Shown here one piece after another: positions 5,325-24,081 of a DNA stretch of 64,000 bases (its first letter is position 1; every line of letters starts with the position of its first letter). Position numbers and translations under genes: made by a program. The stretch is from Staphylospora marina. Lineage in GTDB: Bacteria > Bacillota > Bacilli > Thermoactinomycetales > Thermoactinomycetaceae. Under the pieces are notes generated by a model. It had not been told where the DNA came from. It worked only from the letters and a program-made list of their open reading frames with translations, and searched no databases. The stretch spans positions 600,001-664,000 of the forward strand of contig NZ_CP034118.1 of NCBI RefSeq assembly GCF_003856495.1, in the 5' to 3' direction.

Positions 5325-5400
5325 TCGCCTTGCCGGATACCGCTTTATTATTTTATGGATCTACCCTGTAGGCATATGTTTCTTATCACATTCTACTTTT

Positions 5401-5432
5401 CGGAATCATTAAAGATTCCGTTTTTCATTTTT
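5401..5432 (+). terminator. Rho-independent terminator after the WYL gene
   Basis: CGGAATC (5401-5407) pairs with GATTCCG (5414-5420), followed by TTTTTCATTTTT. It separates the WYL transcript from the cas operon, so cas10d needs its own promoter. Confidence 0.8.
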
Positions 5433-5448
5433 AGACGAACTGAATCTA

Positions 5449-5478
5449 TTGCTTTGATCAGTCCCTAGGCAGCATAAT
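5449..5478 (+). promoter_or_regulatory. Candidate cas operon promoter
   Basis: TTGCTT (5449-5454) and CATAAT (5473-5478) are spaced by 18 bases. They lie between the upstream terminator and cas10d. The match to consensus is partial, so this is only the best candidate in the gap. Confidence 0.35.
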
Positions 5479-5499
5479 GGCAGTGGGAGGTGAGAAAAG

Positions 5500-10087: not shown

Positions 10088-10091
10088 GGAT

Positions 10092-12191
10092 ATGATCCGT
10101 GTTTTGGCAGAGACAGCGAAAACATATGACTTACCGTTTATTGGTAACATCCGTCCCTATGCGCACCAGGCTGTGCAACTTCGGTTGGCAGAAAGAGCTT
10201 TGGAAGGGAATAGAAAGACGATCATTTGGAACAGGGCACGGACCGGAGCAGGGAAGACTCTGGCCAACTACGGATATTTGACCAAAAACCCCCGAGCAAG
10301 GGCCTTGGGAGTCTATCCAGTAAACGAACTGGTGAAGGATCAGTTTCAATCCCTGAAACATGGGCTGCCTTTGGGAATCTGGGATGAGATCTCCCTTTGG
10401 ACCGCGGAAGAGATGAGAAAGGCTCGCATGTCAGGTGAAAGCAAGCTGGAACAGATCAAACGGATGTCTACTCGGTTTCACCGGGCCGTGATGACCAACC
10501 CGGATCACTTGATGCTGATCGCCCAAGAGCGCTTATATGCATTCAAGCAGGGGGAGCGCGTGGAAGCTTTTTACCGGCTCGGCGAATATGCGTTGCAGGT
10601 ATTTGATGAATTTCATCTGTACAATATCGCTCAAGTAAATTTCCTTGCTCAATGGATTGCACTTATGACTGCTTCCTTTCCGAATAAGGGATTTGCTTTT
10701 ATGCTGTCTTCCGCGACTCCTAGGCCAGACGTGTTCCGGCTTATTGAAGGGGCGCAGATAGAGATTTGGAATGTCCAGGAGGAAGTGGAACGTTGGCTGT
10801 CGGAGGAGAATCCGCCAGTGTATGAAGAGAGAGTCTTTTTGGAACCGCTCGATTTGCATGTGGTTTCAAGTTATCTCCAAGCTTGGAACACCGGTGAACG
10901 GATTCTGAAGAACTGGAGCGAGATCGAGGGCTATCTTTCTGAATGGCCGAATGCGAAGGGGTTGATCATTCTCGATTCCATCCACGAAGCGCAGGTCTTG
11001 GCTAACTCTTTGAGAGAAAAGGGGTATGACGTCGGAGAAGTTCATGGCTTGTCAGACCGCAGCCGTAGCCGGGAAGCTTTAACCAAGCAAATCACGGTGG
11101 CCACGGCAACAGTGGAAGTGGGAGTCGACTTCCAAGGTGAAATACGCAAAGATTTTTTGGTGTTTGAAGCACGCGATCCCGGGAGCTTCATGCAGCGACT
11201 GGGGCGTATCGGTCGGGGTAGCCGCCAGAACCCCGATCCACCGATTCACGTTTGGGCTTACGTGCCGGGCTATGTGGCCGAGCAAATTCGGGAAAAGACC
11301 CAATCCGAGATTTCAAGGTCTGAATTGGAAGAGATAGTCACAAGGGCGTATCAATATTTCCAGGATTTCTCCCGTTATATTGAAAAAGTGGGCGGTATGA
11401 ATTTGGTTCACAGTGTTCACTTGCAGAGAAAGCATCACATGAATCGTGAACAAAATCCGGTTTTAGAAGAAATCAAGAGCATTGCCGACCGCATGTATGG
11501 TGTGGGATTTGAGGAGTTGGAGCGGCAATACCGGCAATGGAAACGAGAGAAACTTTTGGAACCGGTTTTGAGCTTCCGTGGACAAAACACGTTGGAGTAC
11601 CAGATTTTCGGATGGGAAGCTGAAGAGTCGGAGACCTTTTATCCGGATATCTGGTTTTGGGATGAAACGGCTCCAGACACCCCCCTCAAGCGGTATGAAT
11701 ACAGCTTCGTGCTCCGGCGACGACGGGTGAGATTCGTGGACAGGGAAGAGCTGGTCAGGCGAGTGAAGGAGCATGTTGCCGAACCGGACCGGGAAGAGTT
11801 ATTGCAAGCGCTCAAGCGGGACAATGTTTTGGGATATGCAGTGGCTACGGGGATTCGGGAGAATCCGGCCAAACTGGTTTGGAGGCTTCCTGTCAAAGCG
11901 TCCCGTTGTACAGAACAACTGGTTCGACTGGATCGCCTGCGGCTTGAATCGGATAATGCAGAGCTGAATGATCAGCTGAACATGCTCTTTCAGTCCATGG
12001 CAAGAACTTCATGGATCGTGTATATCGTCAAACGGTCAGTTGGCGAGTTGAACGATCAACTTCGCCTGCCACCTCTGTTCCGGCTGTATCCGGCCAAAAC
12101 CTTGCAAGGAGCGGACTGGAGCATCGCGTTCAATTCAGAGGCTTTTCAGTTATGGAGCGCTTGGGAAAAGGTCAAAAGTGAGGTTCTCTGA
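10092..12191 (+). CDS. cas3: Type I-D Cas3' helicase (no HD domain)
   Basis: This 699-residue SF2 helicase unwinds target DNA recruited by Cascade. Walker A is GAGKT at residues 52-56, motif II is DEFH at 172-175, motif III is the SSATP segment, and motif VI is QRLGRIGRGS. No HD nuclease is present, consistent with I-D, where HD is on Cas10d. The chosen ATG has AAGGA directly upstream and lies 4 bases after the csc1 stop; the frame is open a little further back but that part overlaps csc1. The gene sits after csc1 and before cas4, whereas in most I-D loci cas3' precedes cas10d. Confidence 0.93.
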   Translation: MIRVLAETAKTYDLPFIGNIRPYAHQAVQLRLAERALEGNRKTIIWNRARTGAGKTLANYGYLTKNPRARALGVYPVNELVKDQFQSLKHGLPLGIWDEISLWTAEEMRKARMSGESKLEQIKRMSTRFHRAVMTNPDHLMLIAQERLYAFKQGERVEAFYRLGEYALQVFDEFHLYNIAQVNFLAQWIALMTASFPNKGFAFMLSSATPRPDVFRLIEGAQIEIWNVQEEVERWLSEENPPVYEERVFLEPLDLHVVSSYLQAWNTGERILKNWSEIEGYLSEWPNAKGLIILDSIHEAQVLANSLREKGYDVGEVHGLSDRSRSREALTKQITVATATVEVGVDFQGEIRKDFLVFEARDPGSFMQRLGRIGRGSRQNPDPPIHVWAYVPGYVAEQIREKTQSEISRSELEEIVTRAYQYFQDFSRYIEKVGGMNLVHSVHLQRKHHMNREQNPVLEEIKSIADRMYGVGFEELERQYRQWKREKLLEPVLSFRGQNTLEYQIFGWEAEESETFYPDIWFWDETAPDTPLKRYEYSFVLRRRRVRFVDREELVRRVKEHVAEPDREELLQALKRDNVLGYAVATGIRENPAKLVWRLPVKASRCTEQLVRLDRLRLESDNAELNDQLNMLFQSMARTSWIVYIVKRSVGELNDQLRLPPLFRLYPAKTLQGADWSIAFNSEAFQLWSAWEKVKSEVL

Positions 12192-12192
12192 A

Positions 12193-12792
12193 ATGGAAAT
12201 TTTTGTGGAGGCTCATGCCATCAATGCATACGCGTACTGTCCCCGTCGCTGCTACTACGAGTACGTCGAACGCGTATTTTATCACAACGTCTACACCATT
12301 CACGGAAAATTGCTGCACGAACACGTTGACCATGCCGGCAGGGAACATCGGGGGGAACGGCAACTTTACCGTTCCCTCTATCTTCGATCTGAACGTTTGG
12401 GGTTGTCGGTTCGATGTGATGTAATTGAAGAGGCAGAAGGGGTGTTGTATCCCGTCGAATACAAACGGGGAAAACAGGCGGGCTGGGAAAACAATCACTT
12501 GCAACTTTGCGCCCAAGGTCTGGCTTTGGAAGAGTGGATCGGCAGAAAGATTCCGTTTGGATATCTCTTTTATTACGGTTCATTCCGACGGGAAAAGGTG
12601 ATTTTTGATGATGCTTTGAGGGAGCGTACCATACAGACGATCAAAGCAATCCGTGCATTGCACCTTCAGGATCAGCCCCCTGAAGGCATTGATGAGTGGT
12701 TCAGATGCAAAAAGTGCAGCATGGTTGACTATTGCCTCCCGCAGGAAAGAGCCAGATTGAAGGGGAAAGTGCCATGGGAACGTTTTACTTGA
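12193..12792 (+). CDS. cas4: Cas4 exonuclease of spacer acquisition
   Basis: This 199-residue RecB-like nuclease trims prespacers and helps select PAM-proximal ends with Cas1-Cas2. Visible motifs are C16 and C20 (YCPRRC), the nuclease residues D76, E89 and K91 (CDVIEE ... VEYKRGK), and C172, C175, C181 (CKKCSMVDYC), giving the four-Cys iron-sulfur site. ATG 12193 has GAGG 9 bases upstream and lies one base after the cas3' stop; a GTG at 12178 is an alternative. It overlaps cas1 by 19 bases. Confidence 0.95.
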   Translation: MEIFVEAHAINAYAYCPRRCYYEYVERVFYHNVYTIHGKLLHEHVDHAGREHRGERQLYRSLYLRSERLGLSVRCDVIEEAEGVLYPVEYKRGKQAGWENNHLQLCAQGLALEEWIGRKIPFGYLFYYGSFRREKVIFDDALRERTIQTIKAIRALHLQDQPPEGIDEWFRCKKCSMVDYCLPQERARLKGKVPWERFT

Positions 12793-13766
12793 GCGAGCCT
12801 TATTGCTTTGTTCGAAAGGAATCAGAGCGGCTCAAAATCTACAAGGATCGTACTCTGATCCGGGAAGTAAGGGTACAGGAATATTCCCGCTTTTTCATTC
12901 ATGAATCCTCAACGTTGACAACAGATGCGTTAATGTTGCTTGCGGAAAAAGGCATTGATGTAGTGTATTTTTCTGGGAACCGCATGATTGGCCGGTTTGT
13001 CGGGCCCGAAAACAAAAACGTTCGGTTGCGGATCGCTCAAGTGAAAGCGCATCTGTCCGAGGAAAAGAGCCTTCACATCGCGCGGAACTTGGTATTGGCC
13101 AAATTGAAAAACACTCGGACCAGCCTTCAACGATTTGCACGTCGCCGTGAATTGGAATTGGACCCGGTCATCTTGTTCTTGAAGCAGTCAATGGACCATG
13201 CTTTAAGAGCGAAAGATCTGGATGAATTGCGCGGGATTGAAGGAATGGCGGCCAAGCGTTATTTTGAAGCATTTCCCATGCTGATTCAGCAAAGCGATTT
13301 CTCGTTTGAAGGAAGAAGCCGAAGGCCGGCCAAAGATCCGGTAAATGCCTTGTTGAACTATGGGTATGCCCTGCTGAAGGCGGAACTGACGGGAGCCCTG
13401 CAAGCTGCCGGTTTGGATCCTTATATCGGGTATCTCCACCGTGAGAGATATGGAAGGGAATCATTGGCGTTGGATTTGATGGAGGAGTTCCGTTGCATCA
13501 TGGTTGACAATCTGGTCGTCAAAATGGTCAACCAGGGAGTGGTCAAACGCAAAGACTTTCATGATGACGTGGGGGAGTCTCGTTTAAAGGAACATGCCCG
13601 GAAACGTTTTTTGCAGGAATTTGACCGCAGGAGAAAAGACGAAGTGTTTCATCAGCTGTTGCAAAGAAAAATGAGTTACCGTGAGATTTTCCACAAACAA
13701 GCCATCTTGCTTGCCAAATTTATTAAAGGGGAGGCGGACGATTACTACCCCTTCTTGGCCAAATAA
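12774..13766 (+). CDS. cas1: Cas1 integrase
   Basis: This 330-residue protein is the metal-dependent integrase that inserts new spacers at the leader end. Conserved acidic and histidine residues are visible at E156 (LRGIEGMAAKRYF), H222 (GYLHRERYGRESLALDLMEE) and D234. Length is normal. The start is ATG 12774 with AAGGGGA upstream, inside the end of cas4, implying coupled translation of the adaptation genes. Confidence 0.97.
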   Translation: MGTFYLSEPYCFVRKESERLKIYKDRTLIREVRVQEYSRFFIHESSTLTTDALMLLAEKGIDVVYFSGNRMIGRFVGPENKNVRLRIAQVKAHLSEEKSLHIARNLVLAKLKNTRTSLQRFARRRELELDPVILFLKQSMDHALRAKDLDELRGIEGMAAKRYFEAFPMLIQQSDFSFEGRSRRPAKDPVNALLNYGYALLKAELTGALQAAGLDPYIGYLHRERYGRESLALDLMEEFRCIMVDNLVVKMVNQGVVKRKDFHDDVGESRLKEHARKRFLQEFDRRRKDEVFHQLLQRKMSYREIFHKQAILLAKFIKGEADDYYPFLAK

Positions 13767-13783
13767 CACAAGGGGGCTATGCC

Positions 13784-14059
13784 ATGAAACGGGTGGTCTG
13801 TTATGATGTAATCGACGACCGCAGAAGAAACAAAGTCTTCAAACTCCTTAAAGATTACGGCCAGCGGGTGCAATATTCCGTATTTGAAGTGGAATGCGAT
13901 GAAGAAAACTGGTTGCAGCTGGAGTTTCGCCTTGTATCGCTGTTGGATGAGGATGACTCTCTTTCCGTGTACACGCTGTGTCAGTCATGTACTCGACGAG
14001 CTTTTTATAAAGGTAGTTTTACGAAGCGTCTGGAGGAAGACACAAATCCGATTTTATAG
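13784..14059 (+). CDS. cas2: Cas2 adaptation protein
   Basis: This 91-residue protein forms the dimer that bridges two Cas1 dimers in the adaptation complex. It has the ferredoxin-like core with the first-strand Asp (VVCYDVIDDRRRNKVFKLLKDYG) and the QYSVFEVE strand. AAGGGGG lies upstream of the ATG, 17 bases after cas1. Confidence 0.97.
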   Translation: MKRVVCYDVIDDRRRNKVFKLLKDYGQRVQYSVFEVECDEENWLQLEFRLVSLLDEDDSLSVYTLCQSCTRRAFYKGSFTKRLEEDTNPIL

Positions 14060-14068
14060 GAGGATACC

Positions 14069-14869
14069 ATGTACCGTTTACGTTTGAAAGTGGATTCACT
14101 GTATCGTGGAAATGCGGTCGGGGTGTTGTCCAGGCGATTTCATGCTTTTATCCTGAAATCCATCCAGCGTGAATCTACCACGTTGTCCCAGCTCCTGCAT
14201 GACAGGAAGGAGCGGCAAATTTTTTCGACACATATGTTGCTGGAGAAAGGGGAAGTGTGGATCAATACGCCGGATCGGGATGTCATTTCTTGTCTTCAAC
14301 GTTACTTTTTGCTTCAGTCCGACATCGACTTGATCGACTGGAAGGGAACCATCCAAGAGATTCATTGCCAAACGTTTTCCGAATCCCGGATTGATGAAAA
14401 GTTTTCATCGAACCTAACCTTGCATTTCTTGACCCCGACGACCTTCTATCAAAGGGGCAATTACTATCCCCTGCCGGAGCTGAAGCGCTTGTTTTCCAGC
14501 GCAATTAAAGCTTATGAGATCTGCAGAGGGAAGCGGGTCGAATGGGAGAACCTTGAACCGCTGATTCATCAGATTCGGATCGAACACTTGGTGGTGGCGA
14601 CTGAGAGAGTTTCATTTGGAGAATTCAATGTCATCGGATTCAAGGGAAAAATAACCATGAACATCAAGGCTCTGCCGAAAGAGGAGCAGCTTTTGGTTTG
14701 GCGGTTGGTTGCGCAAGGCTCGTTGATGGGGTTTGGATACAAAACAGCTTGGGGGTTGGGTCAAACTCTGCTTGATCCGCTCGAAGATGCTCAGGCCTTT
14801 TTCCGAACACCCGGAGCTTCGAAAAAATCCCCGGGGGTGTTCGGAAACGCTAAAACCCGCATGGGATAA
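14069..14869 (+). CDS. cas6: Cas6 crRNA-processing endonuclease
   Basis: This 266-residue protein cuts the array transcript inside each repeat. It has two ferredoxin-like halves and the C-terminal glycine-rich loop GSLMGFGYKTAWGLG typical of Cas6. A candidate catalytic His is H25 (SRRFHAFILKSI). Cleavage of this repeat would leave an AUUGAAAG 5' handle. A strong AGGAGGA precedes the ATG, 9 bases after cas2. The last 20 or so residues (from PGASKK) are encoded inside a 12-bp perfect inverted repeat and look like an added tail. It is the last gene before the array, whereas in many I-D loci cas6 precedes cas4. Confidence 0.93.
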   Translation: MYRLRLKVDSLYRGNAVGVLSRRFHAFILKSIQRESTTLSQLLHDRKERQIFSTHMLLEKGEVWINTPDRDVISCLQRYFLLQSDIDLIDWKGTIQEIHCQTFSESRIDEKFSSNLTLHFLTPTTFYQRGNYYPLPELKRLFSSAIKAYEICRGKRVEWENLEPLIHQIRIEHLVVATERVSFGEFNVIGFKGKITMNIKALPKEEQLLVWRLVAQGSLMGFGYKTAWGLGQTLLDPLEDAQAFFRTPGASKKSPGVFGNAKTRMG

Positions 14870-14948
14870 GAGGTTTCAGGTGTGGGAACGGCGTGATGTT
14901 TGACTGAGTCATTCTAAATTTCCGCCCGAATGAAAAAGTGTTCGGAAA
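14800..14948. repeat. Three copies of an 11-mer around the cas6 end and CRISPR leader
   Basis: TTTCCGAACAC occurs at 14800-14810 and, inverted, as GTGTTCGGAAA at 14837-14847 and 14938-14948. The first two form a perfect 12-bp stem (14801-14812 with 14835-14846) spanning the end of cas6. The third lies 43 bases before the first CRISPR repeat. Binding by a regulator or a role in leader recognition are both possible. No T-run follows, so it is not a standard terminator. Confidence 0.75.
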
Positions 14949-14991
14949 GTCCAAGAGAAAGGCAATCAAAACAAGGGTTTCGGCGAACGCC
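14870..14991 (+). promoter_or_regulatory. CRISPR leader
   Basis: These 122 bases lie between cas6 and the first repeat. They contain a perfect palindrome TGACTGAGTCA (14901-14911), one copy of the 11-mer GTGTTCGGAAA, and a repeat-proximal 21 bases (14971-14991) almost identical to those before the decayed array. The degenerate last repeat lies at the opposite end, so the leader side is here and the array reads on the plus strand. I see no convincing sigma-A promoter, so transcription may enter from the cas operon. Confidence 0.7.
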
Positions 14992-15543
14992 GTCTCAATG
15001 AATACACCTCAGTTAAGAGGATTGAAAGGATATACGGTTTGCCCGGACCTGGAATCCAGTAGAGTCTCAATGAATACACCTCAGTTAAGAGGATTGAAAG
15101 GATGAAGCCGCCGTCATAGTTCAGATGTGCGAACATCGTCTCAATGAATACACCTCAGTTAAGAGGATTGAAAGTGGAGGATTCATCCAACAGACGCCCT
15201 GCCAATTCTGCGGTCTCAATGAATACACCTCAGTTAAGAGGATTGAAAGCCGGTCCCTCGCGGACCAAATCCGGACGGAGCACATGAGTCTCAATGAATA
15301 CACCTCAGTTAAGAGGATTGAAAGGATGCTGCGGGAAGGGCTGAGCTACGACCGGGTGGTCTCAATGAATACACCTCAGTTAAGAGGATTGAAAGGTGCG
15401 GGCATTTAACTGCAAGGCAAAAGGTTGGGAGGTCTCAATGAATACACCTCAGTTAAGAGGATTGAAAGTACGGGAACCTCGCGAAGAAGGGGTGGGGGAT
15501 GTCGGTGCCTCAATGAATACACCTCAAATAAGAATTTTGAAAT
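14992..15543 (+). CRISPR. Type I-D CRISPR array: seven intact 37-bp repeats, one degenerate, seven spacers
   Basis: The 37-base repeat starts GTCTCAATGAATACACCTCA and ends AGAGGATTGAAAG. Identical copies start at 14992, 15064, 15138, 15213, 15288, 15359 and 15432. A terminal copy at 15507-15543 keeps the 5' half but is mutated in the 3' half, as is usual at the trailer end. Spacers are 35, 37, 38, 38, 34, 36 and 38 bases, all different. CCTC and GAGG could form a short stem, and the ending ATTGAAAG gives an 8-nt crRNA handle. The array lies directly behind the I-D operon with the same orientation. Confidence 0.98.
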
Positions 15544-15582: not shown

Positions 15583-16488
15583 ATGAATCTGTCTGACGTT
15601 TTCAAGAAGAAGTTTTTCAACCAACAGTTGCTCCAGGAAGATGACGGTTACATCACAGGTGGAAGTCATGTGTGGCTCGCCCAAACCGATGAGGGGGAAG
15701 TCATCGTTCGCACGTCGGCCATCACCGATCTGGAGAAAGTCCCTTACTGGTACGGAAACCACATCTTGTTCGGCATTGATCCCCGCCGGGTGTTTGTGCT
15801 TGAGAAGTTGAATCGTGAACTGGCTTCGATGACCACCCGCCTGTCGGTTCCGCAGGTTCTGGACAAGGCGTCGCTTCAGGGACATGAATACGTGATCGTG
15901 GAAAAATTGCCGGGAAAAGCATTGGACACATTCAGGGGAATGCCGGACCATCTGATGGAAGACTTCGGAGCATCCATCGCACACATTCATCTCCGGTCGT
16001 TTGACTATTTCGGCGACGTTTCCGGAAGTACGCGCAAACCGTTGACCGATTTCCATGAATGCCTGATTGCGTGCATGACGGAGCTGGTTGAGAAATTTTA
16101 TTCGGAACCGGATGACAAGAGCCGTGGGATTCGGGACATGTTGCCGGAAATTTGTCAGCAAGCCCGATTGCTGCCTGCCCCCTCCTCGTCTTCTTTCGTC
16201 ATGATGGATACGGATCCGTCTCAATTCCTGACCGACGGTGAGCGGGTGACGGCGGTTGTGGATACGGAGAGTTACGTCATCGCCCCGCGGGAACTGGAAT
16301 TGCTCACCCTTGAAATGATTTTTGACGAACAGGCGACGCGGAGCTTCAAAAAGGGATATGCAAGAGTTCTGGAATTCCCGGATCTGTCAACCGTGCGGAC
16401 CGTTTATCGTTACTTTTTGCGTCTGGTGGAAACACAAGGTTCGAGGCCGATGGATGAATGGATGAATCATCCGGCTTTGTTCGGGTGA
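15583..16488 (+). CDS. Aminoglycoside phosphotransferase/kinase-fold protein
   Basis: This 301-residue protein resembles the APH/choline-kinase fold. It shows an N-lobe nucleotide loop and Lys/Arg strand (GGSHVWLAQTDEGEVIVRT), a helix SIAHIHLRSFDYFG, and a C-lobe pair FVMMDTDPSQFL and VTAVVDTESY at the positions of the catalytic and metal-binding loops. The usual HxDxxxxN reads MDTDPSQF, so the Asp is kept but the His and Asn are not; activity is uncertain. Substrate is unknown. It starts 40 bases after the last CRISPR repeat with GAGGGGA upstream and ends at a strong terminator, so array and gene may share a transcript. A link to CRISPR is by position only. Confidence 0.7.
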   Translation: MNLSDVFKKKFFNQQLLQEDDGYITGGSHVWLAQTDEGEVIVRTSAITDLEKVPYWYGNHILFGIDPRRVFVLEKLNRELASMTTRLSVPQVLDKASLQGHEYVIVEKLPGKALDTFRGMPDHLMEDFGASIAHIHLRSFDYFGDVSGSTRKPLTDFHECLIACMTELVEKFYSEPDDKSRGIRDMLPEICQQARLLPAPSSSSFVMMDTDPSQFLTDGERVTAVVDTESYVIAPRELELLTLEMIFDEQATRSFKKGYARVLEFPDLSTVRTVYRYFLRLVETQGSRPMDEWMNHPALFG

Positions 16489-16556
16489 CTTTGTGGGAAT
16501 CGAAACATGGGTGAATCCTTCGGTCAGTGAAAACCGGTTGATTAAGACGGATCTTT

Positions 16557-16589
16557 TCACTCCCTTATCTTGGGATGAGGGAGTTTTTT
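16557..16589 (+). terminator. Rho-independent terminator
   Basis: ACTCCCT pairs with AGGGAGT across a short loop and is followed by TTTTTT. It closes the array/kinase-like gene unit. Confidence 0.85.
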
Positions 16590-16699
16590 CATGCTTTCGT
16601 TGATCATCATATTGGGCCGAAATGACCGTTTTTTCTTTTCTGTTTATGTCAGGAGGAATTCGTTGCTTCCGCGAGAAAAAATTTTCCGAGGTGAAGGGG

Positions 16700-17770
16700 A
16701 TGGACGATCATATTATTCACGAGTTGCTGACTCTTCAAATGGATGGAATCAGGAAATATATCGATCAGCAAGATCATCAGTCTGTAAGAAAAGCCATGAA
16801 TGCGTTGGCCGCTTATTTGATGTCAAGGGGTTTAAAGCCACCGTCAGCTCTCAACCAATGGTTTGAATGGCTTGCGCGACCCGTCGGCACTTGGGTGGAT
16901 TCCTCGCATGAGGATTTGTTCAATTTGGCCGAACCCGTTTTTGACCGGAGAATCAAAGATATCAGTTTCGCTGCCTTTTGCTTCTCGCAAAGGTTCGGTT
17001 CAACGGATGATTATCAGACACGTCCGGTATTGCAGGTGAGAGATCATTGCAAACAACATCATTCGGAAGAAGGGTATGTCCGTTTTCGCTCCATCTTGAC
17101 CCAATCAAAGTTTGCAGTCTTGGACCAGGAGGATTATGTGCGGCTCATTTCCGATGAAAAGGATTTGATCATCAGGGAACAACTGATGAAGTGTTACGAA
17201 CGAATCGACGACTGGAGAGAATACCGGAAGTGTCCACGTTGTGGCTGGACGCTGCATTTTGAACGGGGAGAATGGCGGTGTGGAACATACAATGCTTGCT
17301 GGAAGGTTTCAAAGCACGGGTTTATACATCCCAAAGCCTTTCGCTTCAAAAAGGGCAGCCGTGTGTATCGATTGAAGCCGGGGATTCACCGCTCGGTGCT
17401 TGTTCCCGGGTTACCGGAGCAGAGAATTTACGAAAAAGTAAGAAAAACATATCCCCAAGCCGAATTGTACCCCAATTTTGATCACGACGGAGACATCCGG
17501 GTTGATCTTGGAGGATGCAGGGTTCTGTTTGATGTGAAGAGTTACCTGAGTCCGCACGGTTTGGCGAAGCATCTTGAGTTATCGAAAAATGGAGAGAATG
17601 TACAGGTCATCGTGATCCCTTCAGAATATGAAGTAGAGGGCGGACCTCTTTATGTGAAGAGGCTGAAGAGCCGTTTGTCCGGACGGAAGGATCTGCAAAT
17701 CATTTCTGAGAGGAAAATCATCAGGTACTTGAAGGAGAAGGAACGTCGTGAACAGATTCAATGTGTTTGA
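16700..17770 (+). CDS. pPIWI-RE module restriction endonuclease-like protein (REase_pPIWI_RE)
   Basis: This 356-residue protein is gene 1 of the pPIWI-RE trio. A helical N-terminal region precedes a zinc ribbon at C178, C181, C194 and C200 (KCPRCGWTL ... WRCGTYNAC). A PD-(D/E)xK nuclease core follows: IRVDL with D269, then VLFDVKSY with D278 and K280. The combination of zinc ribbon, REase and a DinG-type helicase plus PIWI protein downstream defines the family described computationally as pPIWI-RE. ATG 16700 (MDDHIIHELL) has GAGGTGA 5 bases upstream; upstream ATGs in frame lack one. Its end overlaps the helicase start by 23 bases. Confidence 0.85.
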   Translation: MDDHIIHELLTLQMDGIRKYIDQQDHQSVRKAMNALAAYLMSRGLKPPSALNQWFEWLARPVGTWVDSSHEDLFNLAEPVFDRRIKDISFAAFCFSQRFGSTDDYQTRPVLQVRDHCKQHHSEEGYVRFRSILTQSKFAVLDQEDYVRLISDEKDLIIREQLMKCYERIDDWREYRKCPRCGWTLHFERGEWRCGTYNACWKVSKHGFIHPKAFRFKKGSRVYRLKPGIHRSVLVPGLPEQRIYEKVRKTYPQAELYPNFDHDGDIRVDLGGCRVLFDVKSYLSPHGLAKHLELSKNGENVQVIVIPSEYEVEGGPLYVKRLKSRLSGRKDLQIISERKIIRYLKEKERREQIQCV

Positions 17771-20700
17771 ATGGCTTTGTGAGCTGACTTCAAAAGAATA
17801 TGTGGAAAGGATGTTCCCGGATAAGAAAGCCGTGAGACGGATGTTGGCGGTGGAATTCGTGCTGTTTGCCATGCATGAACACAAATTGGACGCTTGGTTT
17901 CCGTTGGAGGATGGAGAAGTGTTCGCCAGCGGATGGCACAAGTTGTATGCGGAACATGATTCAATCAGACGGGTCGCGGAAAGAATCCGTGTGTTGACCA
18001 GGGGTTATCAACTCAAGAAATGGAAAGACTGGCTCGGCGAATATCAGCAAATCCCGAGAAACTATCGGCTGTTTGATGTACATATCGGATCCCGAACGAA
18101 GCTTGAGAAGATGGAATTTTCTCCCGTTTCCTGTTCCGATCGCGAATGGTATTACCGCATGATGCTCGAACAGGAGATTCCTTGTGTACCAGTCAGGATA
18201 AAGTTGGCTGAAAGAGGAAAAACGTATGATTATTTGCGAGGCCAAGCGGCAATTCCGGTGAAAATACCCGAGGGGTTGCAAACGACTGCGCTCAAGACCG
18301 GGGTTCTTCCGAGAACCAAAAAAACCGGAATAAAGATGAGGAATGATCTTGGTCCCATCGGAAGGGAAATGGATGGACGTCTTCAGGATAAAGGAAAGAA
18401 GCCTGTATACGAGGAGCGTTTGAAGAATATTGAGTTGGTTCCATTGTCTCCTGATCAATCGTTTGAGTATGCAAACATTCTGCACATCCTTGGGGGATTG
18501 GGAGCCGGAAAGTCGACGTTTGTAACGGCTCAGGCATATGCTCTTGCCGTTTATGAGGGTGCCAAAGTCGGGATTGTTGAAACCAGAGTGGATGATGTCC
18601 TTGACAAAGCGCGTGAGCTTCGGGATCTGGGACTCCGCGTGGTCACCTTCGTGGGCAAAAGTGAAAGAGCGGAATATGAGAAGCGAATCATGGCCAACCA
18701 ATCGATCGAACAACTCATTGATGATCAACGTCTGGAAGATGTATCCTCCTTCTGTGCCATTCACGCGTTGGCCGGTGACCATACACCGTCTGACCGGTAT
18801 CCCTGTACTTCTCTTAATCTCCGAGACCAGGAATCCAACAGGAAAAAGAACAGGCAGTTCATGTGTCCGCTATGGAATCAATGCGGTTTGTATCATCATT
18901 ATCATGAATTGGAACAAGCCGATGTCTACATCGCAACTCCGGCGGCATTGGTGCACATGATGGCTCCCCCTCAACGTTTTCCGCGCAAAACGGTATATGA
19001 GTTGTTTTATGAACTTACGGACGTTGTCTTTGTGGATGAAGCTGATCACGTGCAGTACAACCTGGATCAAGCATTTATGATGGAGATTCCCTTGGTCGGA
19101 GATCCCGACACGCTTGTTGAAAAAGTGCTTCAAAAAGTGATTCGTCAGACTTCCGGTATTCACAAGAAAGTTGTCGACGAGTACATAAATGCAACAATGA
19201 GTTTTGTTCGAGCTGCCAGGGCTGTCTATCGGGTTGTCGAGTCGAATGCAAGACTCAGGAATCGGTTGAAGAGACAGACCGTATTCAAAAACGCATGGTT
19301 GGATCAATTGCAACATAATTTGGAATCTTGGATGATACCGGAAAAGAACAAACAACATATCAAGAGTTTGTTGAAGAAGTGGAGCACTCATCCAGATCCG
19401 AACCATCAGGTATGGAATCACGACGAAAAATTGGCCAGAACAATAGGACAATTCATGGATGGAAAAGGAAAGTTGGAAGAAGTCTTGAATACGGATCTGA
19501 TCGTACTGACGGACGAAAAAGCGGAGAATTTGGAAGCCGAATGGCGTTTTGGATTTTGGCTTTGTTCTTTGGAATATTGGCTTTCTTATCTTGAGAGAAA
19601 CGAAGATGAGGTTCGGCAAGAACTGGAAGATTTCTCTGCGGATCTTCCGTTCCGGATGAAGAAGAACGTTCTGGTTTCATATCTCCCTCGTGCCATGACC
19701 GGAGTGCAGATCGGGTACCAGTGGGTGGACCGATCCGAACATGGGAAGACGACGCACGTGATCAAAATGTTTGCCTATGAAGCGGTGGGACGTGAATTGT
19801 TGTATCAATGGCCTTCTTTCTTTGAACACGCCGGATTGGGGCCGGGGCCGTCGGTTGTTTTGCTTTCCGGGACCACCTTGTCACCGGTGAACACTCCCTA
19901 CACTCTTTCGTGGAGTCCCCAATGGTTGTTGAGATCTCCCAACCAATCCGAACGACTGGACCAGATGCTTTGGAACAAAACGCAAATCAAGATCTCCGGT
20001 CAGCCCTTGAATCAACGGGTTCGCAACCTGAAGTCGCTGACCCGAAGCATCATGGAAGAGATTCCGAAAGAGATGGAGAGATGGAAGAAAGAAGGCAGGA
20101 AGCGAAGGATTCTGTGTGTTGTCAATTCATATGACGATTGCGAGGTTGTCCGGGAAACGCTTCAACCGCTGATGATCAGGGATGGATTGAACATTCATTC
20201 TTTGGCAAAGGAATCGGTTCATCCGGGGCAAATCACCCGAAGCGAGTTGATCCAACAGGCTTCATCCTCAGATGTGTTGATTGCGCCGATTGGCGCCTTG
20301 AACCGGGGGGTGAATTTGGTGGATCCGAACGGAAAGGCTCTGTTTGGAACCGCGTTTTTTCTGGCTCGCCCCTATCCCTCACCGGAAAATGTGGAATTCA
20401 TGCTCATCGCCTTGCACAGTTTGATGGACGGAGAATTGGAACGAATCCAGAGAAGCCGACATGCATCACCGCTCGCCAAGTTGAAAAAATTGAGGAGAAC
20501 CGCACATGTGATTTTTCAGGATATGATCGCAACTCCTGACTACTGGTCGGGATTACCGGAGCAGAAAAGGAACGTGTTGGCTTGGGTGCTGTTCGTGAAT
20601 GTCTGGCAGATGATCGGGCGTTTGGTTCGAGGTGGAGAGCCGGCACGCGTGTATTATTGCGATGCATCCTTTTACGAACCAAGCGAGCATGCACCCACCA

Positions 20701-20837
20701 TCTTGGAAGTGTGGCAACGGTTGTTGAGCGAATCAAATCGGGATGAGTACCGGGACCTCTACGGGCCTTTCACGGATTCTCTGAACAAATTGCTTTCGCA
20801 TCGATGGGCGGACGAGGAGGAAGAGGAATTTGGATGA
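17748..20837 (+). CDS. pPIWI-RE module DinG-type helicase (pPIWI_RE_Z fused to SF2 helicase)
   Basis: This 1029-residue protein is gene 2 of the trio. An N-terminal module of about 230 residues (pPIWI_RE_Z-like) precedes an XPD/DinG-like SF2 helicase. Walker A is GGLGAGKST near residues 249-257 and the DEAD-like box is VFVDEADH near 427-434. Motif VI is QMIGRLVRGG near 960. Four cysteines C336, C353, C373 and C379 between motifs I and II match the iron-sulfur cluster of DinG/XPD helicases. Such enzymes unwind DNA or R-loops 5' to 3'. The start is GTG 17748 with AAGGAG upstream; its end overlaps the PIWI gene by 8 bases, so the three proteins are made together. Confidence 0.87.
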   Translation: MNRFNVFEWLCELTSKEYVERMFPDKKAVRRMLAVEFVLFAMHEHKLDAWFPLEDGEVFASGWHKLYAEHDSIRRVAERIRVLTRGYQLKKWKDWLGEYQQIPRNYRLFDVHIGSRTKLEKMEFSPVSCSDREWYYRMMLEQEIPCVPVRIKLAERGKTYDYLRGQAAIPVKIPEGLQTTALKTGVLPRTKKTGIKMRNDLGPIGREMDGRLQDKGKKPVYEERLKNIELVPLSPDQSFEYANILHILGGLGAGKSTFVTAQAYALAVYEGAKVGIVETRVDDVLDKARELRDLGLRVVTFVGKSERAEYEKRIMANQSIEQLIDDQRLEDVSSFCAIHALAGDHTPSDRYPCTSLNLRDQESNRKKNRQFMCPLWNQCGLYHHYHELEQADVYIATPAALVHMMAPPQRFPRKTVYELFYELTDVVFVDEADHVQYNLDQAFMMEIPLVGDPDTLVEKVLQKVIRQTSGIHKKVVDEYINATMSFVRAARAVYRVVESNARLRNRLKRQTVFKNAWLDQLQHNLESWMIPEKNKQHIKSLLKKWSTHPDPNHQVWNHDEKLARTIGQFMDGKGKLEEVLNTDLIVLTDEKAENLEAEWRFGFWLCSLEYWLSYLERNEDEVRQELEDFSADLPFRMKKNVLVSYLPRAMTGVQIGYQWVDRSEHGKTTHVIKMFAYEAVGRELLYQWPSFFEHAGLGPGPSVVLLSGTTLSPVNTPYTLSWSPQWLLRSPNQSERLDQMLWNKTQIKISGQPLNQRVRNLKSLTRSIMEEIPKEMERWKKEGRKRRILCVVNSYDDCEVVRETLQPLMIRDGLNIHSLAKESVHPGQITRSELIQQASSSDVLIAPIGALNRGVNLVDPNGKALFGTAFFLARPYPSPENVEFMLIALHSLMDGELERIQRSRHASPLAKLKKLRRTAHVIFQDMIATPDYWSGLPEQKRNVLAWVLFVNVWQMIGRLVRGGEPARVYYCDASFYEPSEHAPTILEVWQRLLSESNRDEYRDLYGPFTDSLNKLLSHRWADEEEEEFG

Positions 20838-23208
20838 TCAAAAGCATTATCTCGAATTCATGGCGGTGGATGTGACGGAGTTTGTGCCTGAGGATGATAT
20901 ACATGTTTTTTATTGCCCCGAAAGTTGGATTGAGCAGCTGTCGGCGGGAGACGGGGGATATAAGCTGAAACTTCGATCAATCGGTGACGAGTTGAGCTTG
21001 TTTCGTCCGGAGCTACTGAGCTGTTCGTTCAAAAGAAGAGCGGTGATCGGGGAAGCGCCGATGTTTTATTCCTTGGATGTATTGCCGGTCGGGGAGATTC
21101 ATGAACACTTTGTCAGACACGGGAGGGCTTCTGAAAAAGGTTTCCGGCTGAGGGACACGGGAAGATGGGAAAAACTTGACGTCACGCATCGACCGCTTCT
21201 TTTTGAATGGCTTCCGGGGTATTTGGCCCGAAAATTCGTCGAACGGAGACCGGTCTATGAAGTACGTGACAAAAATGGTGTTGTGTTGGCGGAACTCGAT
21301 TTTTGTCTTGTAAAAAAATACGGAGAGGTTGGTTGTATCACCAGACCCTGTGAGCTGGACGGAAAGTACTATTCATATGCCGTATATTTTTCCATCCAAA
21401 CGTTTCCTCATCGACCCGGCAGGTTTTATCTGTTCGTAAAACCTGTTCTTCATCGATATGTTTCAAGGTCGTTGAATGATCGAAAAATGTTGAGGAGAAT
21501 CAAACGCACCAGTGTATTTTTGCGGTTGAACCGAAGTGTGCTTCACCCTTTTGTGTCGCTGGAAGCAAAAAAAGCCGACCAACGTGGCGAATCCGCAGCA
21601 TTGATGGAGTGGGAGAGACCCAAAGTTGTGGAGGATGTGAATCGGGTTTGCGAACATCCTCTCACTTGGGAATCATTGCTGAACAATCCGGTATCCTGGA
21701 TGAATCACCAGGGAGAAATGTCTGCGTTGATGTTGTATAACCCCAACACTTTTGTTCAGGGTCATGACATCATTGCTTCCGGATTGGGGTTGCCGGACAG
21801 GCGAAGGCTGTATGAGTTGGTTCGGAATGTGTTGGCATTGCCGCCGTCGCTGGTGACCACCAAAACCGTCATGCAAAAAACAAGCAACGTGAAATTCTTT
21901 CCGCTTGTCACATCCGAGCCGTTAAAAATCGATGTTCAGTGCCATGTCACGAAATCCCATTTTGACGCCCTGATCCAATCGTTGTCCAAGACGGATGAGG
22001 ACGCTCTGCCATTGTCGTCGGGATGCAGGCAAATGGAAGACTGTTCATTTATGCTTGACACCGACAAACATCCCTTGATTCTGAGACTCAGGCATATTCC
22101 GGAAAGTCATGTGGTTCGGGAGATCAACCGGCACGATCCCTCCAGAACCGTCACAGAAATCAGAAGGTATATCCGTACATGTATCGAACCGGGAGATCAT
22201 TTGAAAGCAGCCATCATTGAAATCAAAGACAAAGACAAGTGGTCATCAGATCAGTTGGATCCGAAAGAATTCGTACGGTATGCATTTTGGGAAGAAGGCG
22301 TTCTCACCCAGTTCATAACGGACGAAGAGCAAAGTCTTTCACATCGGGCACACAGTGCCGTTTCAGATCTTCTCAAGGACTTCGGAGTGTTTCGTCAGTG
22401 CCTGAAAATACCTGAAGATGGATCAAAATGGCTGTTTGTAAAAGGAAGCGGAAAATCAACACATCCAAAAGTTTGGATTGCCAGACTGATGGGGAATCGA
22501 GTGGATTTTTGTTTGCAGGATTCCCGTTTGGGATGGCAATCAGCACACGAGTTGGTTTTGAATGCCGAAGGCCTCAGACGGAGTTTGTATTGCCAAAGAA
22601 GCACCAAAAACAAACGGGATTTTGTGGATTTTATTGAGGAGGTATTGAGCATAGAGTTGGAGAGTGGTTGCGAAAACCTGTTTGTTGTCTTTGACCGGGG
22701 CACTTTGTCCAAACTGTACGACCCGGTGCAAAACAAATGCCTGCTGGAAGGCAAGTGGCGATTTGAACGCAAGGCTCTTCTGGATGATCCGCGGTTGAAG
22801 ATCATCCGCATGAGTGATTCAACATCGCCGGCAGTACCCGAGTATATCAGCAGAACAAAGTCGAAACCCATGGATCATTTTTCGTCTGGGCTTTACATTT
22901 CGGAAGACATCTATTACAGCTTGGGACCAAAAGGTGATACCATTCGGTTTTCGCCAAAAGTCGAAAGATCATTTACCGTGGATGAATTCCTCCGTCAACC
23001 GAACTTGCAGGAATTTTTCCCGGTTGGAACCCATTGGGACAAAAGAGCGAAAACCGATGCAGTCATTCATTTGCACCGATGGAGAAGAGCCTCCGTCACA
23101 TACAAGCATGCGACCATTTATCCTGCTCCGATGCATTCGCTGGAGACCATTGAGAAGTACATGTCAATGTTTCTGACCGTCGAAGCTCAAAAAATGTCCT
23201 TCCAATAA
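20830..23208 (+). CDS. pPIWI-RE family PIWI/RNase H-fold protein
   Basis: This 792-residue protein is gene 3 of the trio. The N-terminal half corresponds to the pPIWI_RE_X region. The C-terminal half is an RNase H-fold PIWI domain: strand GCENLFVVFDRGTLSKLYDP, the segment LKIIRMSDSTSPAVPEYI, SGLYISEDIYYSLGP, and the C-terminal HATIYPAPMHSLETIEKYMS. pPIWI-RE proteins lack the usual Argonaute PAZ and MID layout and carry conserved Arg and Glu residues that give the family its name. A guide-dependent or R-loop-directed role with the REase and helicase is predicted; I know of little direct experimental work. The start is TTG 20830 after a GAGGAGG/AGAGGA region, overlapping the helicase stop. A terminator follows. 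Confidence 0.87.
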   Translation: MDDQKHYLEFMAVDVTEFVPEDDIHVFYCPESWIEQLSAGDGGYKLKLRSIGDELSLFRPELLSCSFKRRAVIGEAPMFYSLDVLPVGEIHEHFVRHGRASEKGFRLRDTGRWEKLDVTHRPLLFEWLPGYLARKFVERRPVYEVRDKNGVVLAELDFCLVKKYGEVGCITRPCELDGKYYSYAVYFSIQTFPHRPGRFYLFVKPVLHRYVSRSLNDRKMLRRIKRTSVFLRLNRSVLHPFVSLEAKKADQRGESAALMEWERPKVVEDVNRVCEHPLTWESLLNNPVSWMNHQGEMSALMLYNPNTFVQGHDIIASGLGLPDRRRLYELVRNVLALPPSLVTTKTVMQKTSNVKFFPLVTSEPLKIDVQCHVTKSHFDALIQSLSKTDEDALPLSSGCRQMEDCSFMLDTDKHPLILRLRHIPESHVVREINRHDPSRTVTEIRRYIRTCIEPGDHLKAAIIEIKDKDKWSSDQLDPKEFVRYAFWEEGVLTQFITDEEQSLSHRAHSAVSDLLKDFGVFRQCLKIPEDGSKWLFVKGSGKSTHPKVWIARLMGNRVDFCLQDSRLGWQSAHELVLNAEGLRRSLYCQRSTKNKRDFVDFIEEVLSIELESGCENLFVVFDRGTLSKLYDPVQNKCLLEGKWRFERKALLDDPRLKIIRMSDSTSPAVPEYISRTKSKPMDHFSSGLYISEDIYYSLGPKGDTIRFSPKVERSFTVDEFLRQPNLQEFFPVGTHWDKRAKTDAVIHLHRWRRASVTYKHATIYPAPMHSLETIEKYMSMFLTVEAQKMSFQ

Positions 23209-23223
23209 ACACTTATTGTTGGA

Positions 23224-23251
23224 CCCCTTGGCAATCCAAGGGGGCTTTTTT
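23224..23251 (+). terminator. Rho-independent terminator after the pPIWI-RE operon
   Basis: CCCCTTGG (23224-23231) pairs with CCAAGGGG (23236-23243), followed by a run of T. It marks the right end of the AT-richer island. Confidence 0.9.
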
Positions 23252-23364
23252 TGAATGGGTTGCGTATCTATTTCCATGTTTCATTCGTTTACCTTCAAAA
23301 GGAGAAATGGGGTGTACCACTTCGCATCGGTCGGGAAAAAAACCGAATGGGAGGAGGAGACCGG

Positions 23365-24081
23365 ATGAACATCGGAGGATCCGCGGAAAACCCGGGGGTT
23401 GACGGGAAAAGTTTGGAACGGTTGCAGGCCGTTTTGAACCGCTACTGCCTGGCCGTGACGGGTTCCGATTGGGATGCCGAGGATTTGGCTCAGGACACTT
23501 GGTTGAAAGCGACCGGAACGTTAAGACGAGGGCATGCCAACCCTGAAGCATTTTTGCTCCGAATCGCGAAGAACACATGGATCGACCAAGTGCGGAGAAA
23601 AGCGGTTTTGGCCCGGATTTTGAACCGGGAGAGGCCGAAAGAAGCGCTGCCGGATCATGGGTCGTTTGAAATCGAGTGGATGTTCCAAGCCTTGATGAAG
23701 CATTTGTCGCCCTTGCAGCGAACGGTGTTTTTGCTGAGGGATGTTTTCGGATATTCCAGTGCGGAGACGGCCGAATGGCTCGATACGACGGAGGGAGCGG
23801 TGAAAGCGGCTCTTCGTCGGGCACGCCGGTCTCTGGCGGCCGTCAGGGATGAACTGGAAAAAGGCACGCTTCCGATCCCTGAGAAGGAACACGTGAAAGC
23901 TTTTTTGCGAGCGGTTGCGACTGCGTATCAGGAGGGAGAGGTTGCGAGGCTGGTGGAGCTGGTTCTCCGGGACGAAGCGGATCCTGCCATGGTGATCGGA
24001 GTTGTCCAAAGCCGGGCTCTTTGGAAGCCCGAACGGGCAGGGCGTGTCGAACCCGGCCGGTCGACCCGATTGGCGGCTTAG
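23365..24081 (+). CDS. ECF-type sigma-70 family RNA polymerase sigma factor
   Basis: This 238-residue protein has sigma region 2 around residues 20-90 (WDAEDLAQDTWLKA ... PEAFLLRIAKNTWIDQVRR) and region 4 around residues 110-160 (LSPLQRTVFLLRDVFGYSSAETAEWL, TTEGAVKAALRRARR). About 65 residues follow, starting AFLRAVATAYQEGEVARLVEL, which look like the beginning of a SnoaL-like extension but stop early. The neighbour is an NAD-dependent epimerase. ECF41 sigma factors typically pair a SnoaL-like tail with an epimerase or oxidoreductase target gene, so this may be a shortened relative; that is inference. ATG 23365 has GGAGGAGG at ideal spacing. Confidence 0.85.
   Translation: MNIGGSAENPGVDGKSLERLQAVLNRYCLAVTGSDWDAEDLAQDTWLKATGTLRRGHANPEAFLLRIAKNTWIDQVRRKAVLARILNRERPKEALPDHGSFEIEWMFQALMKHLSPLQRTVFLLRDVFGYSSAETAEWLDTTEGAVKAALRRARRSLAAVRDELEKGTLPIPEKEHVKAFLRAVATAYQEGEVARLVELVLRDEADPAMVIGVVQSRALWKPERAGRVEPGRSTRLAA

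What the first reader, a model, noticed from the sequence alone, without database searches (positions are those of the whole stretch)
16700..23208. Complete pPIWI-RE three-gene module
Three overlapping genes encode a zinc-ribbon PD-(D/E)xK nuclease (D269, D278, K280), a DinG-like iron-sulfur helicase (C336, C353, C373, C379; Walker A; DEAD-like box) and an RNase H-fold PIWI protein. The set and order match the computationally defined pPIWI-RE class, for which I know of little experimental work. It is intact, has overlapping starts implying stoichiometric expression, and has its own terminator. It could be a PIWI-based anti-phage or anti-plasmid system that senses R-loops or guides.
Basis: partly seen in the sequence, partly recalled or inferred. 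Interest (0 to 1): 0.9.

Follow-up and report, generated by a model that had tools for sequence, protein, structure and literature searches.

The report
A complete pPIWI-RE defence operon
Three adjacent bacterial genes encode an Argonaute-like protein that seems to have lost its own cutting site, plus a helicase and a DNA-cutting enzyme; they form an intact copy of a known but barely tested system that probably destroys invading DNA.

Summary
Three overlapping genes (16700-23208, +) encode a zinc-ribbon PD-(D/E)xK nuclease, an iron-sulfur DinG-type helicase and a PIWI/Argonaute-fold protein. All three pass Pfam gathering scores for pPIWI-RE families; the PIWI model aligns with Argonautes over nearly its whole length. 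It is a new member of a known class (Burroughs 2013), not a new system.

(2) In 44 PIWI proteins the putative guide 5'-end pocket is kept (42 of 44 at three positions), but the first RNase H aspartate is present in 1 of 44 and none keeps both. PIWI is therefore best read as a non-cutting, guide-loaded targeting subunit, with nuclease and helicase as effectors: the logic of the plasmid-destroying systems DdmDE and ApsAB, here split over three proteins. (3) The operon lies beside a complete type I-D CRISPR-Cas locus, but an array recurs in only 1 of 34 other distinct loci scanned, of another repeat type. Anti-invader function, guide type and target are inferred, not shown.

The parts
16559..16584 (+). 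terminator-like stem-loop with T run, after the upstream APH-like gene; left border of the operon
   Evidence: 11 pairs, 5 G-C, tail TTTTTC; read
16689..16694 (+). ribosome-binding-like AGGTGA, 5 nt before the ATG at 16700
   Evidence: read from sequence
16700..17770 (+). gene 1: Y domain, zinc ribbon and PD-(D/E)xK nuclease (pPIWI_RE_REase), 356 aa
   Evidence: model pLDDT 89.7
17231..17299 (+). zinc ribbon C178-C181-C194-C200
   Evidence: C in 45, 45, 45 and 44 of 45
17417..17539 (+). nuclease active-site stretch E240, P258, D265, D278-V-K280
   Evidence: E240, P258, D265, D278 and K280 in 45 of 45; D269 in 4 of 45
17748..20837 (+). gene 2: Z domain plus DinG-type superfamily 2 helicase with iron-sulfur cysteines, 1029 aa, GTG start overlapping gene 1 by 23 nt
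18492..18518 (+). Walker A GGLGAGKST (249-257)
   Evidence: G254 and K255 in 45 of 45
18753..18884 (+). four putative iron-sulfur cysteines C336, C353, C373, C379
   Evidence: 45 of 45 each
19035..19046 (+). Walker B DEAD (430-433)
   Evidence: D430, E431 and D433 in 45 of 45; A432 in 38
20830..23208 (+). gene 3: pPIWI-RE protein (X, MID, RNase H-fold PIWI), 792 aa, TTG start overlapping gene 2 by 8 nt
   Evidence: model pLDDT 79.4, pTM 0.82
22264..22347 (+). putative MID guide 5'-end pocket K479-x3-R483-x10-Q494-x11-R506
   Evidence: K, R and Q in 42 of 44 each; R506 in 39 with K in the other 5
22441..22443 (+). K538: place of the first RNase H catalytic Asp (strand 533-539), not an acid here
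   Evidence: D in 1 of 44
22693..22695 (+). D622: place of the second RNase H catalytic Asp (end of strand 617-622), kept here
   Evidence: D in 19 of 44
22807..22809 (+). R660, the 'R' of pPIWI-RE
   Evidence: 41 of 44
23011..23013 (+). E728, the 'E' of pPIWI-RE
   Evidence: 40 of 44, D in 2 more
23224..23252 (+). intrinsic-terminator-like stem (23224-23243) and T run closing the operon
   Evidence: 8 pairs, 6 G-C; one search shows the T run

Best explanation
This is an intact pPIWI-RE three-gene island. Most likely mechanism: the PIWI protein binds a short nucleic-acid guide by its 5' end in the MID pocket and pairs it with invading DNA, but does not cut, because its RNase H site is broken. 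It then recruits or licenses the DinG-type helicase, which loads on the displaced strand and unwinds, and the zinc-ribbon PD-(D/E)xK protein, which nicks or degrades the opened DNA. The net effect would be loss of plasmids, conjugative elements or phage DNA. It works like DdmDE and ApsAB, with their single helicase-nuclease protein split into two genes. Shown here: gene content, order, domain families, Argonaute-type fold model, residue conservation, missing slicer Asp. Inferred: guide binding, recruitment, DNA as target, defence role. Open: guide type (RNA or DNA), guide source, target.
For: Domain models pass Pfam cut-offs. PIWI model: Foldseek E down to 3.5e-13; 47 of the 50 listed rows name an Argonaute or Piwi-type protein and the other three (4kpy_A, 4kpy_B, 8xih_B) have titles that name only a protein-DNA complex; second look RsAgo Z 14.4, 541 residues, rmsd 5.7. 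Order nuclease-helicase-PIWI in 33 of 33 distinct complete triads outside the plasmid set, this one included. Conservation split: nuclease E240, D265, D278, K280 in 45 of 45; helicase Fe-S cysteines, G254-K255 and D430-E431-D433 in 45 of 45; MID pocket K479, R483, Q494 in 42 of 44; first PIWI Asp in 1 of 44, both Asp in 0 of 44. Context: complete type I-D CRISPR-Cas beside it; in 26 genomes with a relative, 13 of 28 McrC or PDDEXK_7 hits fall in the 0.33% of sequence fetched around the triad. Triads also sit on plasmids. Functional precedents, read as passages: DdmDE (PMC12409362) and ApsAB (PMC11096173), where a non-slicing Argonaute-like protein works with a superfamily 2 helicase plus PD-(D/E)xK nuclease; in ApsB a MID-type motif is essential. 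In the nuclease's structural second look, DdmD gives 8 of the 50 rows shown, 179-215 residues, Z 6.6-7.7.
Against: No experiment on this locus or a close relative. The one tested PIWI-RE protein (P. stutzeri, from an operon with DinG and an 'RNase' by that paper's account) cuts with D525 and D610, and its knockout was more sensitive to ciprofloxacin, which fits replication rather than defence (PMC10991935). Slicer loss is thus not universal in the class. DdmD similarity is below Z 8; Upx (Z 8.2) and Bax1 (Z 8.1) rank higher over the nuclease domain alone and the CARF nucleases Cdn1 and Can2 (CARF recalled) reach up to 159 residues; Foldseek gives no match at E <= 0.001. Shared ancestry with DdmD is therefore not shown, and no comparison of the helicase with DdmD could be made. 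Neighbourhood enrichment is inflated by shared ancestry among the mostly Paenibacillus loci.
Confidence: 0.55

Rival explanations
1. R-loop sensor without a stored guide (the Burroughs 2013 model): PIWI directly recognises DNA-RNA hybrids that are frequent on active plasmids or phages, DinG unwinds them and the nuclease cuts the exposed DNA.
For: DinG-type helicases act on R-loops (PMC3702460, section 6 read; PMC11981726 passages). The tested PIWI-RE cuts only with mixed RNA/DNA pairs (PMC10991935). I recognised no guide-making gene in the triad itself.
Against: The putative guide 5'-end pocket is kept in 42 of 44 proteins at three positions, which a pure hybrid sensor would not need. The nuclease or host enzymes could supply guides.
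Confidence: 0.2
2. Abortive infection: guide recognition of an invader switches the nuclease and helicase into general DNA damage that stops the cell.
For: A group of inactive long Argonautes with separate effectors acts by abortive infection (cited in PMC11096173, passage). Nuclease and PIWI are separate polypeptides here.
Against: In the closest functional analogues the helicase-nuclease acts on the plasmid, and the ApsAB authors report no evidence of killing. No data here.
Confidence: 0.12
3. Housekeeping role in chromosome replication or repair rather than defence.
For: Knockout of the P. stutzeri PIWI-RE lowered survival and caused filaments under ciprofloxacin (PMC10991935).
Against: Patchy occurrence: 11 of 101 genomes of relatives, own included, and 2 of 398 across the phylum over the cut-off, one of them this genome; plasmid-borne copies; defence-gene neighbours. 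Not a core function.
Confidence: 0.1
4. Coupled to the adjacent type I-D CRISPR-Cas: PIWI uses crRNA fragments as guides.
For: Array ends about 1.2 kb before the operon; in locus L014 a 94-repeat array starts 361 nt after the PIWI gene.
Against: Only 1 of 34 other distinct loci has an array in the fetched stretch (some stretches end at contig ends, and the plasmid loci were not scanned). The two arrays have different repeats, the one here beside type I-D genes, the other with a type I-B Cas8b about 16 kb beyond it. A terminator-like stem and an APH-like gene separate array and operon here. Defence-island co-location explains it.
Confidence: 0.03

Closest known systems
pPIWI-RE three-gene island (Burroughs, Iyer and Aravind 2013, PMC3702460; PADLOC 'Ppr' models)
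   Same: All three proteins, domains X-MID-PIWI / Y-ZnR-REase / Z-DinG, gene order, overlaps, conserved R and E, patchy spread
   Different: Nothing categorical. No HTH fused to the nuclease was matched; PIWI lacks the first slicer Asp, and that paper says catalytic residues are kept only in a subset
PsPIWI-RE of Pseudomonas stutzeri (PMC10991935)
   Same: Same PIWI family; the spacing of the two catalytic places is 84 here (K538-D622) against 85 there (D525-D610)
   Different: That protein slices with RNA or DNA guides; here K stands for the first Asp.
DdmDE plasmid defence (PMC12409362 passages)
   Same: Non-slicing long Argonaute-like protein plus superfamily 2 helicase plus PD-(D/E)xK nuclease; weak structural resemblance of the zinc-ribbon and nuclease region to DdmD
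   Different: Helicase and nuclease are one protein in DdmD; the helicase here is DinG-like with four conserved cysteines; whether DdmE belongs to the pPIWI-RE family was not tested here
ApsAB anti-plasmid system (PMC11096173 passages)
   Same: MID motif of the same layout (Y-x3-K...Q...K there, K-x3-R...Q...R here), shown essential there; nuclease D then DVK 13 residues on in both
   Different: Helicase and nuclease fused in ApsA; the paper reports that ApsB lacks typical PIWI and PAZ domains. These motif matches are short and common, so not evidence of ancestry

Membership tests
pPIWI-RE three-gene island | PIWI protein with X, MID and RNase H-fold PIWI domains of this family | tested here: met
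   PF13111, PF18157, PF13032 over gathering scores; Argonaute-type model
pPIWI-RE three-gene island | Conserved R and E in the PIWI beta-sheet extension | tested here: met
   R660 and E728 present here; 41 and 40 of 44
pPIWI-RE three-gene island | Gene 1: helical Y domain, zinc ribbon, REase-fold nuclease | tested here: met
   PF18156 and PF18154; C178, C181, C194, C200, D265, D278, K280; fold model
pPIWI-RE three-gene island | Gene 2: Z domain and DinG-clade helicase with Fe-S cysteines | tested here: met
   PF18155, PprDinG 347 bits and typeIV_DinG 26 bits, four cysteines 45 of 45
pPIWI-RE three-gene island | Gene 2: large helical insert before the C-terminal P-loop repeat of the helicase | not tested
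   no helicase model was made
pPIWI-RE three-gene island | Strict order nuclease, helicase, PIWI with overlapping or close ends | tested here: met
pPIWI-RE three-gene island | Extra helix after the three-stranded meander of the RNase H fold | tested here: met
   In the predicted model only: strands 533-539, 548-554, 557-562, then helices 572-577 and 579-587 before helix 595-611
pPIWI-RE three-gene island | Restriction of invading DNA | not testable with these tools
   needs an experiment
Slicing Argonaute (catalytic PIWI) | Both RNase H aspartates present | tested here: not met
   K538 in place of the first; D622 at the second
DdmDE / ApsAB | Helicase and nuclease fused in one protein | tested here: not met
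   two separate genes
DdmDE / ApsAB | Homology of nuclease region to DdmD | tested here: inconclusive
   Z 6.6-7.7 over 179-215 residues, below the trust level; no Foldseek match at E <= 0.001
Component of the adjacent type I-D CRISPR-Cas | Recurrent linkage to the same CRISPR type | tested here: not met
   1 of 34 other distinct loci has an array, with another repeat and a type I-B Cas8b in the neighbourhood

The most novel reading that the evidence does not exclude
pPIWI-RE islands like this one are a three-protein counterpart of DdmDE and ApsAB: a guide-loaded, non-slicing PIWI that loads a separate 5'-3' iron-sulfur helicase and a separate zinc-ribbon nuclease to destroy plasmids. The nuclease-zinc-ribbon part would even be a distant relative of the DdmD C-terminus. 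This would assign a mechanism to a class that, as far as the held papers show, has had only a predicted one since 2013.
Probability: 0.35. Interest if true: 0.7.

Novelty: new member of a known kind. Interest (0 to 1): 0.42.

Why it matters
pPIWI-RE is a poorly understood branch of prokaryotic Argonaute-like proteins: in the held library one paper was found that tests a member, and that member is a slicer. A compact, intact operon whose PIWI has lost the slicer site separates targeting from cutting and makes the class testable by single active-site mutants in a Gram-positive laboratory host. If it proves to clear plasmids, it would link pPIWI-RE to DdmDE and ApsAB as one design of guided helicase-nuclease defence.

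Tried and rejected
First slicer-site assignment, withdrawn by me. In some searches I took the column of M554 as the first catalytic Asp and counted D in 21 of 44, with both Asp in 8 of 44. The model's strands (533-539, 548-554, 557-562) put M554 on the second strand of the meander. The strand with the Argonaute-like hhGhD pattern (pattern recalled) is 533-539, and its D column is K538, D in 1 of 44 (L014, whose second position is N). The window lacks an acid under either reading, but the family-wide count depends on the choice. The plasmid set is 11 fetched loci out of 7 and 25 partly overlapping records; the Hymenobacter PIWI is partial, and three giant proteins were cut to 1150 residues for alignment.

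Sequence search against solved structures: no match for PIWI alone and one irrelevant weak match for its alignment; for the helicase none at 0.001 and four irrelevant weak ones at 10; for the nuclease only weak matches, the best to zinc-ribbon ribosomal proteins. DdmE is not among the 50 rows shown for the PIWI model; this excludes nothing. 'DdmD' is not an accession of the library, so no profile test against DdmD could be made. Papers on DdmD structure were not held.

CRISPR coupling: rejected on linkage and type. Island borders: hemE found in 12 of 21 genomes, own included, and the right-hand neighbour in 14 of 21, mostly weak matches; neither gave an empty-site comparison, so the insertion point is unresolved. 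Promoter: no sigma-70-like site on the + strand in 16400-23500 (4 sites, all on the - strand, fewer than the 7.9 expected). Genome-contig scan with the single PIWI sequence gave nothing; with the helicase alignment 26 loci. One viral-contig scan with the helicase alignment gave nothing; the phage collection gave nothing with the window PIWI or the L024 PIWI; plasmids gave nothing with the window or L048 PIWI but 7, 3 and 25 records with L024 PIWI, L053 PIWI and the window helicase (the 25 are helicase matches, not all checked for a triad).

Not found in print: searches of the held library for pPIWI-RE, PIWI-RE, pPIWI (anywhere), PIWI + DinG helicase + anti-phage, DUF3962, PADLOC-type terms, DdmDE terms, DdmDE + PIWI-RE and Argonaute + DdmD + DinG. 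The one paper holding both DdmDE and PIWI-RE names them in unrelated places (passages). The library lacks preprints and most subscription papers, so a DdmDE link may have been drawn elsewhere. Papers seen: PMC3702460 abstract and section 6; PMC10991935 abstract, sections 3 and 16 and part 1 of section 11; PMC11981726, PMC12342005, PMC10573157, PMC12409362, PMC12904381, PMC12564509 and PMC11096173 passages only; the rest as search listings.
Full report
1. The observation. Three genes on the + strand overlap head to tail: a nuclease gene (16700-17770; the open frame reaches back to 16622, but the start at 16700 has the ribosome site and matches relatives), a helicase gene (17748-20837, GTG) and a PIWI gene (20830-23208, TTG). 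Terminator-like stems with T runs lie before them (16559-16584) and after them (23224-23243). All three proteins pass the curated Pfam scores of the pPIWI-RE families: REase and Y for the first, Z for the second, X, MID and RNaseH for the third. PADLOC's Ppr models agree. PF13032 matches once in the held 2.75 Mb genome.

2. Fold. A model of the PIWI protein (26 sequences, pLDDT 79.4, pTM 0.82) has best Foldseek E 3.5e-13; 47 of the 50 listed rows name an Argonaute or Piwi-type protein, the other three titles name only a protein-DNA complex. The second look gives Z 14.4 for RsAgo (541 residues, model 7-786) and for CpAgo (607 residues, model 4-781). So the X region occupies the place of the N-terminal part of long Argonautes. 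The nuclease model (27 sequences, pLDDT 89.7) has no Foldseek match at E <= 0.001. In the second look its C-terminal part aligns with Upx (Z 8.2, 98 residues), Bax1 (Z 8.1, 99 residues, rmsd 3.2) and Holliday junction resolvases; Cdn1 and Can2 reach up to 159 residues; and the longer stretch from about residue 105 aligns with DdmD in 8 of the 50 rows shown (Z 6.6-7.7, 179-215 residues, rmsd 4.5-7.5, one of them starting at residue 1). These Z values are in the range where a common arrangement can suffice.

3. Relatives. PF13032 is found in 11 of 101 genomes of relatives, own included, and, over its cut-off, in 2 of 398 genomes drawn across the phylum, one of them this genome. A scan of named species genomes with the helicase alignment gave 26 loci: mostly Paenibacillus, with Brevibacillus, Gorillibacterium, Paenactinomyces, Shimazuella, Kroppenstedtia, Rossellomorea, a Peptococcaceae MAG, Nocardia and Actinomadura. 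In all 33 distinct complete triads outside the plasmid set, this one included, the order is nuclease, helicase, PIWI; one (L033) has an extra ORF between the first two. Eleven triads from the plasmid collection were added: cyanobacteria, Streptomyces, Pseudomonadota and Hymenobacter.

4. What selection keeps. Nuclease: E240, P258, D265, D278 and K280 in 45 of 45, zinc-ribbon cysteines in 45, 45, 45 and 44 of 45. Helicase: four cysteines, G254-K255, D430-E431-D433 and Q954, G957, R958, R961 in 45 of 45. PIWI: K479, R483 and Q494 in 42 of 44 each, R506 in 39 with K in the remaining 5, R660 in 41, E728 in 40. In layout K-x3-R...Q...R this resembles the Y-x3-K...Q...K motif that contacts guide 5' ends in long-B Argonautes (motif as printed in PMC11096173, passage); the equation is mine. 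In contrast, the first RNase H aspartate (strand 533-539, column of K538) is D in 1 of 44, the second (column of D622) is D in 19 of 44, and both together in 0 of 44. An earlier column choice of mine gave other numbers (D in 21 of 44, both in 8 of 44) and is withdrawn on the strand order of the model. The P. stutzeri protein shows that a triad PIWI can be a slicer, so the loss describes my sample, not the class.

5. Mechanism. The pattern, a kept guide pocket, a lost slicer and invariant nuclease and helicase sites, is what a division of labour predicts: PIWI aims, the helicase opens, the nuclease cuts. Burroughs et al. (PMC3702460, section 6) proposed an R-loop-directed restriction system and noted that only a subset keeps RNase residues. 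Since then DdmDE and ApsAB have been described (PMC12409362 and PMC11096173, passages): in DdmDE a catalytically inactive Argonaute recruits a superfamily 2 helicase with a PD-(D/E)xK nuclease that moves 5' to 3' and removes plasmids; ApsAB pairs an Argonaute-like protein with a helicase-nuclease and destabilises plasmids. DinG is also a 5'-3' helicase (PMC11981726 passages). ApsA's nuclease residues (D, then DVK 13 residues on) have the spacing seen here (D265, D278-V-K280), though such motifs are common. I therefore think this operon works like DdmDE and ApsAB with helicase and nuclease on separate chains. That it is related to them by descent is not shown.

6. Context. The 2-kb windows between about 2 and 23 kb have G+C 0.41-0.52; beyond 24 kb most have 0.52-0.61, with a dip to 0.49 near 39-42 kb. 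Upstream lies a complete type I-D CRISPR-Cas locus: WYL regulator, Cas10d, Cas7d, Cas5d, Cas3d, Cas4d, Cas1d, Cas2d, Cas6 (4281-14869) and an array of 7 identical repeats plus one degenerate (14992-15543). An APH-like gene lies between array and operon (15583-16488). Among 37 other loci (34 distinct; some end at contig ends) an array was found only in L014: 94 repeats beginning 361 nt after the PIWI gene, with a type I-B Cas8b about 16 kb beyond the array. This is defence-island company, not a shared part. The same holds for the named relatives: in the 26 genomes, 8 of 14 PDDEXK_7 hits and 5 of 14 McrC hits lie in the fetched stretches, which make up 0.33% of the sequence. The McrC positions were matched to contig ranges by eye, one runs past the edge of its locus, and related loci are not independent.

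7. Verdict. This is a new member of a known kind, in a group where the system is patchy. What is added: the corrected active-site residue, the loss of the slicer dyad in the sampled proteins, the conserved putative guide pocket, the absence of a special link to CRISPR, and a concrete testable model by analogy with DdmDE and ApsAB.

Noticed in passing
window 4281-15543: Complete type I-D CRISPR-Cas locus with WYL regulator and a short array (7 identical repeats plus a degenerate last one).
   Followed up: partly
window 15583-16488: APH-like phosphotransferase gene (PF01636, 36 bits) between the CRISPR array and the pPIWI-RE operon; far below the cut-offs of the three NCBIfam aminoglycoside models it weakly matches.
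   Followed up: no
L064:5289-14591 (Bradyrhizobium plasmid), L059 from 8091, L060 from 8268: Giant pPIWI-RE proteins of about 3100-3400 aa on three alphaproteobacterial plasmids: the PIWI module is followed by some 2000 further residues (AAA_22 domain at 2417-2543 in the Bradyrhizobium one), with a divergent WYL regulator upstream of the triad in all three.
   Followed up: partly
L014:11050-18878: CRISPR array of 94 identical 30-nt repeats starting 361 nt after a pPIWI-RE gene, beside Hma-like genes (L014:598-3894, L055) and, about 16 kb beyond the array, a type I-B Cas8b (L054:17019-18917).
   Followed up: partly
L030:15530-16489 and similar genes in L029, L042, L043, L044: A gene whose L030 copy has an HD domain overlaps the end of the PIWI gene in three loci (L030, L042, L044) and lies about 4 kb after it in two (L029, L043); a possible fourth component of that branch.
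   Followed up: no
L053:8127-9880: Streptomyces plasmid triad continues with two more overlapping genes, the second an Mrr-like nuclease.
   Followed up: no
L047:6405-8099, L049:6878-8578, L050:5461-7098: Actinobacterial triads preceded by an extra gene; the L047 copy matches PADLOC PprPDDEXK at 318.8 bits and the other two are similar to it by BLAST; a possible four-gene version.
   Followed up: no
L058:8940-11860: Hymenobacter plasmid: three ORFs stand where one PIWI gene is expected, only the last with an RNaseH annotation; perhaps a decayed copy.
   Followed up: no
L033:8182-9964: Extra 431-aa ORF between nuclease and helicase genes in Brevibacillus panacihumi.
   Followed up: no
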